This document shows, piece after piece, positions 1 to 4,788 of a stretch of DNA of 64,000 nt. The stretch is from contig NZ_PUED01000001.1 of assembly GCF_003024925.1 (NCBI RefSeq), positions 1 to 64,000 of the forward strand, given 5' to 3'. A program made the translations under genes and the position numbers. Positions within the stretch are counted from its first letter, which is position 1. The number at the start of each line of letters is the position of its first letter. The stretch is from Paramuribaculum intestinale. Its GTDB lineage: Bacteria; Bacteroidota; Bacteroidia; Bacteroidales; Muribaculaceae. The notes under the pieces are model-generated. The model was not told where the DNA came from. It saw only the letters and a program-made list of their open reading frames with translations, and searched no databases.

Positions 1-397
1 CGAGGCTGTCCTTCGAGTGAATGTACACACTGCCGAGCTCGCCGCGCATAAGGGCTTTGGCCAGCTTTTTTGAATCCACCGGGTCTGACTTCGAGACCTT
101 TTCCTTCTGGGTGGTCGGAACGTCAGCAGCATGTACCACGGTGCATTTTATACCAAGCTCAGTCAGGGCATAATAGGTCGAGAAGCCAGAAAACCCCGTC
201 TCGTAGGCTGCATGGTAGCTACCGTTAGGATAATGCTTGTTCAAATGTTCAAAGAGCTCTTTGGCCGAAGCCTTTTGAGTATGAGTGCGCATAAACCCAG
301 AGGGGGTGAGCACCGTGACACTCCATGTTCTCAGATGGACGTCAATACCAATAGAGATATTTTGTCCGCTGAAATCTTTTTTGTTACTTTGTACCAT
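1..397 (-). CDS. IS110-family transposase, N-terminal part
   Basis: The reverse strand from position 397 reads MVQSNKKDFSGQNISIGIDV and stays open to the window edge (132 codons). It shows the DEDD RuvC-like N-terminal domain of IS110 transposases: IGIDVH (first Asp), YETGFSGF (Glu), and ADVPTT followed by KSDPVDSKKLAKAL (third and fourth acidic positions). These enzymes recombine a circular intermediate into a target and in characterised cases are guided by a bridge (seeker) RNA. The C-terminal domain with the catalytic serine is not in the window, so integrity cannot be judged. The ATG at 397 is the first after a stop and fits the usual family N-terminus. Confidence 0.88.
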   Translation of the reverse strand, partial: MVQSNKKDFSGQNISIGIDVHLRTWSVTVLTPSGFMRTHTQKASAKELFEHLNKHYPNGSYHAAYETGFSGFSTYYALTELGIKCTVVHAADVPTTQKEKVSKSDPVDSKKLAKALMRGELGSVYIHSKDSL

Positions 398-545
398 AGA
401 CGTATCGGTTTTGCTGTTAATGTATTTTGCTTTTACAAATTTACATGCAATTGCCCTTACGTCTATCTTTTCTCCTCACTCCTCTCGGGGGAAAGCCTTA
501 GCGGCAAGGGGGCAGACAGCCCCCGTTGAGCGCCCCGTCAGCTAA
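398..545 (-). ncRNA. Candidate IS110 bridge-RNA region
   Basis: The 150 nt upstream of the transposase start code for nothing evident and contain a strong stem-loop at 508-524 (GGGGGC / GCCCCC, 5-nt loop) plus further G- and C-rich blocks at 480-540. In characterised IS110-group elements the non-coding end beside the transposase start encodes a structured bridge RNA with target- and donor-binding loops. That this copy does so is inference from position and structure; the loops cannot be assigned without both ends and the target site. Confidence 0.35.
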
Positions 546-1398
546 TCTGATGCAAACATAGTGACTTTCTATTATGGTCGATAATGATATATCCATAAGG
601 CTTGTCCTTTCGCCCGAAGAAAACAAGGTCGATGCCAAAGTTCTTCTTCAAGTCTGCCTGTAGTCCCTTTACATCGGTATTGACGTTACGATACTTCAAC
701 AGTAGAGCCTTTATCTCCCACTGTCGCTGACGGTTTCGTCTGCGCTCCGGGAAGGAATCTTCAATCTCAGAGACAGCAACCTTCATCTGGACGGTTCCCT
801 GCCTCTTTATATATAATGTGTCGTCCTTGACATAGCTCTCATACCCGAGGGAGGAGAGGAGAGCCTTGAACTGTGCCATCGAGGTGTAGCAGTAACCCTT
901 GGCTTTTTCCAAATCCTTCTCTGTTTTCTTCCGTGCGTCCTGGCCGAGAATCCTGTCGATTGCCCTTTGAGAGCGTATCCGCTCCTGACTGTCGTTAATC
1001 TTGGTTCCGTCCGGCGCGACCCTTGATGTGACGATGTGAATGTGATTGTTTTCCGTATCGCGGTGGGCATATACGAGCAACGGCTGACCCTCCTGACCAT
1101 ACCCCATCTCTTTGAGATAGGCGTGGGCGAAGTCGAGCAACTCGTCTTCTGTCATTTCCTTCCCTTTGCAGGATATTGCAAGATGAAATTGGGTCTGACG
1201 GATCCGCCCGTTCCGTTCTGAATAGGTCTGGAGATAAGAGCGCAGCTCTTCAGGAGCAGGCTTACCGAAGCTGTCTATGTCTTCGAGAATCCCGAAGTTC
1301 TTTATCTCGATAAGACGAGCCGTGCCTTTGGCAACCTTGCGCTCGTTGTAAAGAACGGCATGGAAGTTGGGACTGCCGGGAAGGATTGTTGCAATCAT
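538..1398 (-). CDS. Relaxase/mobilization nuclease, C-terminally truncated
   Basis: A 286-residue relaxase of the MobA/VirD2-like type (pfam Relaxase), which nicks oriT and pilots the strand during mobilization. The metal-binding histidine motif HRDTENNHIHIV is at residues 112-123, and Tyr17 in HAVLYNE is a candidate nucleophile. The frame is normal through KDKPYGYIIIDHNRKS and then ends in seven unrelated residues (LCLHQIS) exactly where the IS110 element begins, so the C-terminal portion has been cut off. The N-terminal catalytic domain is intact and might still nick. mobC lies upstream on the same strand, but a 309-nt gap separates them, which is unusual because such genes are normally adjacent or overlapping. 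Confidence 0.85.
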   Translation of the reverse strand: MIATILPGSPNFHAVLYNERKVAKGTARLIEIKNFGILEDIDSFGKPAPEELRSYLQTYSERNGRIRQTQFHLAISCKGKEMTEDELLDFAHAYLKEMGYGQEGQPLLVYAHRDTENNHIHIVTSRVAPDGTKINDSQERIRSQRAIDRILGQDARKKTEKDLEKAKGYCYTSMAQFKALLSSLGYESYVKDDTLYIKRQGTVQMKVAVSEIEDSFPERRRNRQRQWEIKALLLKYRNVNTDVKGLQADLKKNFGIDLVFFGRKDKPYGYIIIDHNRKSLCLHQIS

Positions 1399-1707
1399 GG
1401 TTCGTGAAATGTTGTACTTTGATTTATTACCCTTTGAATTATGGGGTATGAATCATATATTTCTTCATTACGACTGATGTGTTTTGGTTCCACGTCTTGT
1501 GGCGATATGGCTCTATGGGCTATAACTCATAAAATCATGTTGCACGATTTTTCAAGCATGAAGCCTGAATTTATAAATGAATATCTCTTGTGCCATGAAG
1601 TTTATACCCTTGAATAATACTTCATGCAATGCAGCGACAAGAATCATATTTCACAAAATTCTACATCACGTCCCGGAACATCATAATTTATGGACTATGG
1701 TGCGATA
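1399..1707. other. AT-rich non-coding gap between mobC and relaxase
   Basis: No open reading frame of note. It holds an inverted repeat at 1594-1626 and two copies of the word GAATCATAT (1450-1458 and 1641-1649); a third copy is at 2495-2503 in the other gap. Its role is unknown. It could be a mobilization or regulatory site, or the remnant of a lost gene. Confidence 0.5.
1594..1626. repeat. Inverted repeat CATGAAGT/ACTTCATG
   Basis: An 8-bp perfect inverted repeat (1594-1601 and 1619-1626) that can extend inward by TTAT/ATAA with one bulged base. It could be a protein-binding or nicking-region hairpin of the mobilization system; the function is inferred only from its position between mobC and the relaxase gene. 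Confidence 0.4.
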
Positions 1708-2103
1708 TTATTTGCCCCGATGAAGTAATGTGGCTTGTTTCGTTACGTCAAGAAGTGCGCTTCTGATGGCTGAAACTGTGCCCTCGATACCGCGTACCGC
1801 AGGAATGACTGTTTTCTCCAGATACGACTTACTCAGCAGACCTGCAACGGCAAGTTCGTTGGCTCTCTTGACCACCTGATTGAGATTGGCGGACAGATGG
1901 AACAGCTCGTTGTGATACTCGCGATATAGCTTGCCAAGCTCATTGATCAGCTCCAGCCGTCGTTTGGCATCTGTGTCTGAAAACTCTGCTACGGCATCCC
2001 GTATATACTGACTGACAGAGCGGTAGCCCTTTGATTTCTCCCTGATAAACTGCGCCTCGGCTTCCGTAAGGCGTAGTTCGATTCTCTTGATTCTACGGTT
2101 CAT
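1708..2103 (-). CDS. MobC-like relaxosome accessory protein
   Basis: A 131-residue protein beginning MNRRIKRIELRLTEAEAQFI with a ribbon-helix-helix-like N-terminus (basic strand, then the YRSVSQYIRDAV helix). Its middle segment, HLSANLNQVVKRANE, is the hallmark of bacterial mobilisation proteins (MobC family, L-x-NLNQ-x-AN). Such proteins bind oriT and help the relaxase open the DNA. It is transcribed toward the relaxase, with the probable oriT region upstream. The start is set by the first ATG and the basic N-terminus. Confidence 0.8.
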   Translation of the reverse strand: MNRRIKRIELRLTEAEAQFIREKSKGYRSVSQYIRDAVAEFSDTDAKRRLELINELGKLYREYHNELFHLSANLNQVVKRANELAVAGLLSKSYLEKTVIPAVRGIEGTVSAIRSALLDVTKQATLLHRGK

Positions 2104-2199
2104 TTTGACTGTGATTGCTGTTTACAGTGGGCCATATCCATCGGATTCTCGCCGGAGGCGAAACAGAGGCGGCAGCCTCCACCGCCGCGTAGCGGTCGG

Positions 2200-2259
2200 C
2201 AAGTGGCTTTTCAGAGGGCGAAATCCGGCAGGATTTTGTACGGCGAAAAGCACAACTTG
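2200..2259. repeat. Nested inverted repeats, candidate oriT
   Basis: Outer imperfect arms CAAGTGGCTTTTC (2200-2212) and GAAAAGCACAACTTG (2245-2259) enclose a perfect inner hairpin AAATCC-GGCA-GGATTT (2221-2236). A hairpin cluster just upstream of mobC and the relaxase gene is the usual place for an origin of transfer. No nick site can be named from the sequence alone. Confidence 0.4.
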
Positions 2260-2854
2260 CTTCCCAAAAACTGTAGAAAACGGCATATGCCCACAAGGTT
2301 CTCAGGAGCAAATCTACCGATTCCGGCCTGCTCCCATGGAAATGCACAACACTTTTCTCAAAAGACCGCGAGGCATGATTTATACTTCATACATAATGCC
2401 TTGTCGCAATATGAACATTCACATAATGTTTCAAGTGTCACCGGGATATAACCCAATACCACGAAACTTTATGCGATATGATACGATGGACTTTGAATCA
2501 TATCCCATAGGATAATACATCATTTTGCATATATCAAAATCTCACATATTATCGTATGGAATTTAGCGATGCGCAAAATCACGTTTCATGGAACATGAGT
2601 TAATGTGGTAATGTCGCATGAGCCTTGATTCGATGATTTATAACTTAAATGACGGGGATTTGAAAATCATAATCTTTAAAGCATGGTGTTTTATGTATCA
2701 ATTCATGGCATTTGTTTTGACGGTGCATAAGGGAATAAAAGAGCTTTCGTAAGCCTCTAAATTCACTCAATAGGATGCAATATCATTGTTGAAACGAGAA
2801 TGTCAGCGCCAATAAATTAATCACTTGATTTCGTGTGATTTATTGACTTGAAAA

Positions 2855-2886
2855 TTTGTTCAACTCGCTGATTTTTAGTATATTTG
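2855..2886 (+). promoter_or_regulatory. Bacteroidota-type promoter
   Basis: TTTG at 2855-2858, a 20-nt spacer, and TATATTTG at 2879-2886 match the Bacteroidota sigma consensus exactly. The expected transcript start is about 2891-2894, downstream of the ATG at 2888, which supports the later start at 2927 for the following gene. Confidence 0.75.
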
Positions 2887-2926
2887 CATGAGGGATACTC
2901 CCTCGGAAACCATAAAGAATACGATT

Positions 2927-3163
2927 ATGCCCGAGCTTCTATTATTCATATATCTCACTCTTTTCAACCTGCTGTTCAAGGGTGTCTGCTGGATAGTATT
3001 GACGCTGTTCCGCATTGCGCTCTTCATATTCCGTTGGACGATAGAAATTATAATCTATGCCATCCGCTTCCTTTATCGTCAGCTTTCCAAGGTGGCTGCA
3101 TGGGGATGGAGAAAGGGATTTACGCACTATCGCACCCGGTATTCTCGGCAGTTGACACCGTAA
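2927..3163 (+). CDS. Small basic membrane protein of the mobile element
   Basis: A 78-residue protein beginning MPELLLFIYLTLFNLLFKGV. It is a nearly continuous hydrophobic stretch (two probable transmembrane segments at about residues 2-30 and 32-48), followed by an aromatic, basic tail (WGWRKGFTHYRTRYSRQ). The ATG at 2927 is preferred over 2888 because the promoter places the transcript start after 2888. It is divergent from mobC and convergent with the integrase. I do not recognise the family; a role in maintenance or transfer of the element is only a guess. Confidence 0.6.
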   Translation: MPELLLFIYLTLFNLLFKGVCWIVLTLFRIALFIFRWTIEIIIYAIRFLYRQLSKVAAWGWRKGFTHYRTRYSRQLTP

Positions 3164-3180
3164 GACTACGACTTTAGGGA

Positions 3181-3214
3181 AATAAAAAAACCATGCCAGT
3201 CAATACGACCGGCA
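3181..3214 (-). terminator. Intrinsic terminator of the integrase gene
   Basis: On the reverse strand, a stem TGCCGGTC / GACTGGCA (3194-3201 with 3207-3214, one G-U pair) is followed by a run of T (complement of AAAAAAA at 3184-3190). It lies between the convergent integrase and small membrane protein genes. Confidence 0.65.
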
Positions 3215-3291
3215 CGGCAGGCAAGGAGATGTTTTGGGTCTGTTCCCTAATGTGGAGTTTTGAAGCTCGCTCTCACTCGGGCTTGGCAGGT

Positions 3292-4788
3292 TCAGAAGCC
3301 TTTTCCTTTGGTTCGCTCGTAAACCACCTCTTTCTGTGAATCGCAGTTGGTGATTCGGAACTGTACGGCGCAGCCTTCCGGAATATCGTCAGGGAACTGG
3401 GCTGCGAGAGCCTTGATTATTGAATCGACTGTGCCGAAGCCTATGTCTGTAAGTTCAGCGATGACTTTGCCTTTGAAGTAGGCACGTCCATATATCATCA
3501 TCTTCTTTGATATACGGAAGAGCTTGTCTTCTGTTTCCTCAAAGTCCTTGGCTTTTCCCTGCTTGCTCTTTTGGTCACTGAAGAAAACGAACTCGATGAC
3601 CTTGGCGTTGAGCCGCCATGCAGGAGAATAGTCGAGTTTGACGTAGCCTCGGGTCACTCTGAAACCGTGGCTATGGTTCATGCCGAACGCTACCTCGAAC
3701 AGATTCGCGTCACAGTCGTTCTGGGCTATGGTAGCCCATGTGTGACGGAACGTATAGCCGCTGTATTTCTTGTCCTTGTCGGTTATGCCCATATCCGTAC
3801 AAATCTTCTTTATTCCGGAATTGACGTTGGCATTGAAGCTGTCGGAATCGCAGTATCGCTGATGGAAGATGAAGAGATATTCGTCATCTTCTCCGGCGAG
3901 ATACTTGTCGAATATAGGCTGGATGAACGGTTCGACGCGCATTTCCATATACGCCTCGTCGGAACGACTGTGGCGGGTCTTTGCTCGCTTGTAATGAAGG
4001 ATGCCGTTGTAGTAGTCGACCTTCTTCATGTTGTAGAGATCAACTGTGTTGATGCCGCCGAGGCAAAGTACAAGTTTCGCCACGTCACGTCCGAACTCCG
4101 GCAGAGGGGACAGCATTTTTGATTTTGGCAGAGGACGGTTGAAGAACTCTCGACATTCCTCGGCACTGATTGCCTTTTGTTCAGCCTTGTCAGCCTTTGG
4201 GATGGAGACTTTCAACCATGGATTGAACTTGATACGGATTATCCCTTTCTCCTCATCGTTCAGTTCAAGGATAGCCGCCTTGAATATTTGACGGATGCAG
4301 ACGGGGTACATTTCCTTGCAACGCGCCTTGTTCATGAGCGACTTTATCCACTTCTGGAGTACTGTTGAAGAAAGGAACGAAAACATGATTTGGTTGGTGC
4401 CGAGGTATCGTTCCAGACTCTGCACAGCCATCTTGTAGTTCTTGGCGTTGCGCTCGTGACCTGAATTGATCATTCGGTTGATGTGGAGCTTCGCGTAGTC
4501 TGTGAAACTCGCATCGCTCTCTTTCGTCTGTAGGAATGACACAACTTCCTGAACAGTCCAGATAGACGTATCCTGAAGATTGAGACGACGTGTATAGTCG
4601 GAGATGAGCTGAGTACAGTAGCGTAGTACTTCGTTGTCGCGAATTTCCTTGGTCTTGGTCACCGAGGAGGGTGCGACTAGTTTGTCGGTTTTGATATACC
4701 CGGGTTTTCTGTTTTGTATGACCCGGATGTAGACGGGATAGTACCCGTCTGAGCGTTGCTTCTGAACGCATGGTCTTAGGGTTGCCAT
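3292..4788 (-). CDS. IntDOT-like tyrosine recombinase (integrase)
   Basis: A 498-residue site-specific integrase: an N-terminal arm-type domain (about 1-75), a SAM-like core-binding domain (about 90-205) and a catalytic domain (about 215-395). TFRHTWAT supplies Arg II (Arg348), MNHSHGFRVT gives His372, and Tyr382 in RGYVK is the nucleophile. The Arg I box reads GGINTVDL, with Asn247 where most family members have Arg, and the usual His three residues before Arg348 is Tyr. IntDOT of CTnDOT also lacks Arg I. About 100 residues beyond the catalytic Tyr form an extra C-terminal domain containing MMIYGRAYFKGKVIAELTD. It lies at the element end beside ppdK and is preceded by phased repeats. Confidence 0.88.
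   Translation of the reverse strand: MATLRPCVQKQRSDGYYPVYIRVIQNRKPGYIKTDKLVAPSSVTKTKEIRDNEVLRYCTQLISDYTRRLNLQDTSIWTVQEVVSFLQTKESDASFTDYAKLHINRMINSGHERNAKNYKMAVQSLERYLGTNQIMFSFLSSTVLQKWIKSLMNKARCKEMYPVCIRQIFKAAILELNDEEKGIIRIKFNPWLKVSIPKADKAEQKAISAEECREFFNRPLPKSKMLSPLPEFGRDVAKLVLCLGGINTVDLYNMKKVDYYNGILHYKRAKTRHSRSDEAYMEMRVEPFIQPIFDKYLAGEDDEYLFIFHQRYCDSDSFNANVNSGIKKICTDMGITDKDKKYSGYTFRHTWATIAQNDCDANLFEVAFGMNHSHGFRVTRGYVKLDYSPAWRLNAKVIEFVFFSDQKSKQGKAKDFEETEDKLFRISKKMMIYGRAYFKGKVIAELTDIGFGTVDSIIKALAAQFPDDIPEGCAVQFRITNCDSQKEVVYERTKGKGF

What the first reader, a model, noticed from the sequence alone, without database searches (positions are those of the whole stretch)
398..560. Non-coding IS110 end may encode a bridge (seeker) RNA
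Immediately upstream of an IS110-family transposase start there is about 150 nt of non-coding, hairpin-forming DNA (508-524 stem GGGGGC/GCCCCC plus other GC blocks). In characterised IS110-group elements this is where the RNA that guides target and donor choice is made. If confirmed, it would be a Bacteroidales member with its own target specificity, here directed into a relaxase gene.
Basis: partly seen in the sequence, partly recalled or inferred. Interest (0 to 1): 0.65.

Follow-up and report, generated by a model that had tools for sequence, protein, structure and literature searches.

The report
Jumping gene; guide RNA elsewhere
The flagged DNA is the left end of a Bacteroidales insertion sequence whose target-choosing guide RNA is encoded at the other, right end; the flagged hairpins look like promoter and read-through control, so this is mostly an ordinary member of a known kind with its guide RNA in a different place from the one proposed.

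Summary
Observation confirmed: window 398-568 is the 171-nt non-coding left end (LE) of an IS110-family element, inserted in a relaxase gene and cut off by the contig end at position 1. Intact 1588-bp copies show short subterminal inverted repeats and a longer 346-nt right end (RE), the IS1111 layout. The RE, not the LE, holds a covarying RNA (18 of 24 pairs with compensatory changes). Its two variable loop segments match the right and left insertion flanks of 19 natural elements (0 of 20,000 permutations reach the observed values). The LE shows no such signal, and the RNA model finds nothing in the window. For this element the guides are CTCGCCTCCTT and AAAAGAAAGG; the empty relaxase site reads AATAGAAAGGAGG. 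The LE has two other structures. (1) An inverted repeat brackets a TAnnTTTG promoter box and ends at the transposase start codon; its arms coevolve across relatives, suggesting protection against read-through transcripts. (2) The flagged GGGGGC/GCCCCC stem belongs to a module also found beside IS30, IS256, ISL3 and integrase genes, so it is not a target guide; its function is unknown.

The parts
1..568 (-). Left part of the IS (LE plus the 5' part of the transposase gene); element position p corresponds to window 569-p; the right part is lost at the contig end
   Evidence: same DNA in five contigs of the genome and in intact 1588-bp copies; junctions
2..397 (-). IS110-family DEDD transposase, first 132 residues, open at the contig end
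   Evidence: Pfam PF01548; full-length copy PF01548 + PF02371 and NCBIfam IS110 RNA-guided transposase
549..561 (-). Subterminal inverted repeat CTATGTTTGCATC, 7 nt inside the left end; its partner at the right end reads CTATGTTGTATTC on the other strand; contains TATGTTTG (553-560)
   Evidence: conserved in relatives
473..534 (-). GC-rich module; stem GGGGGC/GCCCCC at 508-524, small hairpin GCCGCTAAGGC at 495-505, second C run at 484-494. Shared with unrelated mobile elements; not a guide RNA
458..466 (-). 5' arm ATAGACGTA of the inverted repeat that brackets the promoter
436..443 (-). TAAATTTG, fits the Bacteroidetes -7 box TAnnTTTG; present 46-57 nt before the start codon in 20 of 20 relatives
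   Evidence: consensus from PMC7366714
396..404 (-). 3' arm TACGTCTAT of the inverted repeat, running into the ATG
566..578 (-). Left half of the target with the shared A's (AATAG AAA); intact site CATAATAGAAAGGAGGTGC in L118; right half on contig C19 (L044)
569..1398 (-). Relaxase (MobA/VirD2-like) gene interrupted by the element; the ORF call to 538 runs into the IS by chance
   Evidence: Pfam PF03432; 99% identical uninterrupted copy in L118

Best explanation
Window 1-568 is the left part of an IS1111-type member of the IS110 family. Its bridge/seeker RNA is made from the right non-coding end (about L011:4101-4248 in an intact copy), which this contig lacks. [quoted passage not shown] Shown by computation: the covarying structure and the guide-flank matches. 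Inferred: pairing in the cell and recombination by the DEDD transposase. The flagged left end is a control region: a subterminal repeat, a GC-hairpin module of unknown role, and a promoter bracketed by an inverted repeat whose 3' arm reaches the start codon. A transcript starting at the element's own promoter lacks the 5' arm and can be translated; one reading in from the host gene carries both arms and folds over the start codon, so landing in an active gene would not switch the transposase on (inferred).
For: RE RNA: 18 of 24 pairs with changes on both sides, covariation 0.540 against 0.221 +/- 0.017 shuffled, lost when partners are slid. Model R1 finds it in the RE of all complete copies and in three relatives not used for training (E 5e-22, 1e-16, 1e-9), and not in the window. 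Guides match own flanks over 19 elements: right 133 against 68.2 +/- 5.4, left 100 against 73.6 +/- 4.4, 0 of 20,000 permutations each; swapped controls flat. Sixteen left and thirteen right flanks of this IS match its guides far above random positions. RE 346 nt, LE 171 nt; subterminal repeats; IS1111 elements carry the RNA in the RE (PMC11208160) with the top-strand match 5' of the bottom-strand match (PMC11187229), as here. LE repeat: z -5.71, arms coevolve (-16.6 against -7.4 kcal/mol, best of 720 class permutations), TAnnTTTG between the arms in 20 of 20.
Against: The RE is absent from this genome's assembly, so the RNA is inferred from copies elsewhere that are 99-100% identical. No expression data. 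Subterminal repeats are only 7 bp perfect, shorter than the 11-13 bp usual for IS1111 in PMC11187229. The right donor guide is not settled. In this element the -33 box is not clear. The translational role of the LE repeat is untested; a DNA-level role (transposase or regulator binding) would also conserve a palindrome.
Confidence: 0.85

Rival explanations
1. One reading: the left end (398-560) encodes the bridge RNA, as in IS621 and other IS110-group elements.
For: LE is non-coding, 171 nt, lies upstream of the gene and is structured; in the IS110 group the RNA is in the LE (PMC11208160).
Against: LE segments match neither flank in either sense above permuted values; the flagged stem is shared with unrelated mobile elements that have other targets; a complete guide RNA is found in the RE.
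Confidence: 0.03
2. The LE inverted repeat is a DNA site (for the transposase or a regulator) rather than an RNA hairpin that hides the start codon.
For: Inverted repeats conserved by coevolving arms fit a protein site as well; the repeat overlaps the promoter.
Against: Arm sequences differ completely between close classes (TAGACGTA, TTGGTACG, CGTGTATAT) while pairing is kept, and the 3' arm stays within a few nt of the start codon; subterminal repeats already serve as conserved end sites.
Confidence: 0.25
3. The LE also makes a regulatory RNA, antisense to the leader, as Asr9 in ISPpu9.
For: ISPpu9 has a structured 5' UTR that hides the ribosome site, an antisense RNA upstream and a second RNA downstream (PMC8450116).
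Against: No antisense promoter was identified; the scan used here models sigma-70 sites that are not informative for Bacteroidales.
Confidence: 0.1

Closest known systems
IS1111 group of the IS110 family (ISEc11, ISKpn4, ISPa11; seekRNA, PMC11187229)
   Same: DEDD transposase, subterminal repeats, longer non-coding region and guide RNA downstream of the gene, top-strand guide 5' of bottom-strand guide
   Different: Bacteroidales lineage; subterminal repeat perfect over only 7 bp; an LE of 171 nt with a promoter-spanning repeat; its own target code
IS110 group, IS621 (bridge RNA, PMC11208160)
   Same: Two-sided target guides in a loop around a two-base core; transposase C-terminal part similar to IS621 and ISCro4
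   Different: IS621 encodes the RNA in the LE; here it is in the RE; core probably AA, not CT
ISPpu9 of Pseudomonas putida (PMC8450116)
   Same: Structured 5' leader of the transposase mRNA that would limit translation; non-coding regions on both sides of the gene
   Different: No antisense RNA shown here; here the structure spans the promoter, so own-promoter transcripts would escape it
IS10 and IS50 protection against read-through transcription (own knowledge)
   Same: Inverted repeat formed only in transcripts from outside, close to the transposase start
   Different: Unrelated transposase; effect not tested here

Membership tests
IS110 family (both groups) | DEDD N-terminal domain plus Transposase_20 C-terminal domain | tested here: met
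   PF01548 and PF02371 above cut-off in the intact copy; NCBIfam NF033542 193 bits, cut-off 140
IS1111 group | Subterminal inverted repeats (7-17 bp in PMC11208160; usually 11-13 bp in PMC11187229) | tested here: met
   CTATGTT perfect over 7 bp, continuing imperfectly, at both ends; at the lower limit
IS1111 group | Terminal extensions of 7 bp left and 3 bp right | tested here: inconclusive
   Left 7 (AAAGTCA); right 2, or 3 if a further base is counted
IS1111 group | Longer non-coding region downstream of the gene | tested here: met
   RE 346 nt against LE 171 nt
IS1111 group | Guide RNA encoded in the RE, top-strand match 5' of bottom-strand match | tested here: met
IS1111 group | RNA co-purifies with the transposase and is needed for movement | not testable with these tools
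   Needs experiment
IS110 group (IS621 type) | Bridge RNA encoded in the LE | tested here: not met
   No guide signal in the LE; RNA found in the RE
IS with read-through protection (IS10/IS50 type) | Inverted repeat around the promoter, 3' arm at the start codon | tested here: met
   20 of 20 relatives; coevolving arms
IS with read-through protection (IS10/IS50 type) | Read-through transcripts are poorly translated | not testable with these tools
   Needs reporter fusions

The most novel reading that the evidence does not exclude
The flagged GC hairpin is a portable structured module that Bacteroidales mobile elements of unrelated families (IS1111, IS110, IS30, IS256, ISL3, tyrosine-integrase elements) have each acquired at an end, perhaps as a two-way transcription insulator in which one G run can pair with either of two C runs.
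Probability: 0.3. Interest if true: 0.5.

Novelty: new member of a known kind. Interest (0 to 1): 0.36.

Why it matters
It places a Bacteroidales lineage of at least 20 natural elements, each with its own readable target code, with the IS1111 group, and gives exact guide and target sequences that can be tested in gut commensals. It corrects the assumption that the non-coding DNA in front of any IS110-family gene is the guide RNA. The coevolving promoter-spanning repeat offers a testable account of how such elements stay quiet after landing in active genes.

Tried and rejected
Rfam scans of the window and of seven loci found no matching RNA family. The plasmid and phage collections hold no similar DNA. 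LE as guide: four permutation tests, all flat. The purine-rich LE stretch GAGGAGTGAGGAGAA (470-484), which resembles the GGAGG target, was considered as a guide and rejected: it has the wrong sense for a right guide and is shared with L054/L055, which carry a different element. GC module as a classical intrinsic terminator: no T run follows it in this element and the scan does not call it. Covariation inside the GC module is small, so it gives no independent proof of an RNA fold. The paralogous site in L045, first taken as the empty site of L004, was dropped in favour of L118 because of a 27-nt repeat that could not be explained. A protein tree of IS110 against IS1111 was not built; the assignment rests on end layout and RNA position.

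Full report
What is there. The window begins at the end of contig C1 of its genome. On the minus strand, positions 2-397 encode the first 132 residues of an IS110-family transposase, and 398-568 are non-coding. Four other contigs of the same genome carry the same left end joined to different flanks. Intact copies exist in Parabacteroides distasonis NM39 (L011) and in other genomes. In L011 the element is 171 nt of left end (LE), 1071 nt of gene and 346 nt of right end (RE), 1588 bp in all.

Ends and target. Left flanks join as ...A[AA]GTCACTATG and right flanks as CATAG[AA]GG... in the copies examined (L010 and L064 read AG at the right core). A congeneric genome, G001, has the relaxase gene uninterrupted, with CATAATAGAAAGGAGGTGCTACATGG. 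The left half of that site is the window flank and the right half is on contig C19 (L044). This fixes the insertion point and supports a two-base AA core, with a predicted circle junction CATAG-AA-GTCACTATG. Both ends carry CTATGTT a few bases inside (subterminal repeats).

Where the guide RNA is. Relatives, most with transposases 47-71% identical, share a conserved block just downstream of the gene. On 21 aligned sequences, 18 of 24 predicted pairs show changes on both sides, 95.2% of cells are paired, and no shuffle reaches the observed values; sliding the partners destroys the signal. A covariance model finds this block in the right end of every complete copy searched, and in three relatives not used to build it (L050, L058, L056). 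It finds nothing in the window (best 8.7 bits, E 1.5). Because the contigs of this genome break inside the element, the block is not in this assembly.

Guides. The block has two variable stretches inside an otherwise conserved loop. The 5' stretch, reverse-complemented, matches the right flank of its own element, and the 3' stretch matches the left flank. Over 19 elements the summed longest match is 133 against 68.2 +/- 5.4 when flanks are permuted (right side) and 100 against 73.6 +/- 4.4 (left side); no permutation of 20,000 reaches either. Guides tested against the wrong flank give chance values. For this element the 5' guide is CTCGCCTCCTT and the 3' guide AAAAGAAAGG; the relaxase site AATAGAAAGG matches the latter at 9 of 10 positions (counted by eye). 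Sixteen distinct left and thirteen distinct right flanks of this IS match at 4.38 of 6 and 5.23 of 9 positions, against 1.41 and 2.43 for random positions. The stretch TAGAAG of the RNA, nearly invariant, matches the right-end donor CATAG[AA]G. The right donor guide remains open: GTGACT in this element fits its own LE (AGTCAC), but most relatives do not show the same match. The guide order, top-strand match first, is the one reported for IS1111 and the reverse of IS110 (PMC11187229), and IS1111 elements carry the RNA in the right end (PMC11208160).

What the left end does. Tested as a guide, the left end fails: its matches to either flank, in either sense, equal the permuted values. First, an inverted repeat, ATAGACGTA (458-466) and TACGTCTAT (396-404), encloses TAAATTTG (436-443), a fit to the Bacteroidetes -7 box (PMC7366714). 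The region folds with z -5.71. In 20 of 20 relatives a TAnnTTTG box lies 46-57 nt before the start codon between such arms. The arms differ between classes of relatives, yet each 5' arm pairs best with its own 3' arm: mean -16.6 against -7.4 kcal/mol, and the true pairing is the best of all 720 class permutations. The simplest account, known from IS10 and IS50 (own knowledge), is that only transcripts entering from outside contain both arms and hide the start codon. That step is inferred. A structured leader that limits translation is documented for ISPpu9 (PMC8450116).

Second, the flagged GGGGGC/GCCCCC stem (508-524) is part of a module (473-534) found in the left ends of about half the relatives. 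It also lies beside unrelated mobile genes: IS110 transposases at their 3' end (L057, L062), IS30 (L111), IS256 (L142, L143, L134), ISL3 (L138) and tyrosine integrases (L133, L136). It was found in 9 of 295 order-level genomes with model R2 and in 3 of 375 phylum-level genomes with R3, always within the order. Some hits lie beside ordinary genes (L135, L153). Its orientation to the neighbouring gene varies, and covariation within it is low. A structured insulator is a guess; the sharing across families is the observation.

Verdict. The proposed function belongs to the other end of the element. The element is a new member of the IS1111 group with a readable target code; the left end is a regulatory region, in which the promoter-spanning repeat is well supported as a coevolving structure and the GC module is unexplained.

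Noticed in passing
window 473-534; L057, L062, L111, L133, L134, L136, L138, L142, L143, L150, L158: One GC-hairpin module recurs in Bacteroidales beside transposase or recombinase genes of unrelated families (IS1111, IS110, IS30, IS256, ISL3, tyrosine integrases; by eye also IS3-like and IstB-like genes), and sometimes beside ordinary genes; not in Rfam.
   Followed up: partly
L024, L029; L025, L026, L036; L030:2587-3000, L034:987-1401, L038:2069-2457: Relatives carry unrelated hairpin-rich blocks at the same place in the left end, one of about 240 bp shared by L030, L034 and L038, as if structured DNA in front of the promoter were exchangeable.
   Followed up: no
L004 (G000:C327) and L045 (G000:C212): The left flank of one IS copy and the right flank of another share the 27 nt AGGCCAACCCGATTCAGGCACTCAAAG; paralogous sites, a direct repeat around one insertion, or an assembly effect.
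   Followed up: no
window 553-560 with the RE end in L011: Joining the two ends would put TTTGG of the right end about 21 nt before TATGTTTG of the left end, a possible Bacteroidetes promoter formed only in the circular intermediate.
   Followed up: no
window 1-4788: The element sits in a mobilisation region: relaxase, a NikA-like protein (1708-2103) and an ORF that looks like a tyrosine integrase (3292-4788, by eye).
   Followed up: no
L023:2767-3848: One near-identical copy has its transposase reading frame broken near residue 54-57 (tblastn in two segments).
   Followed up: no
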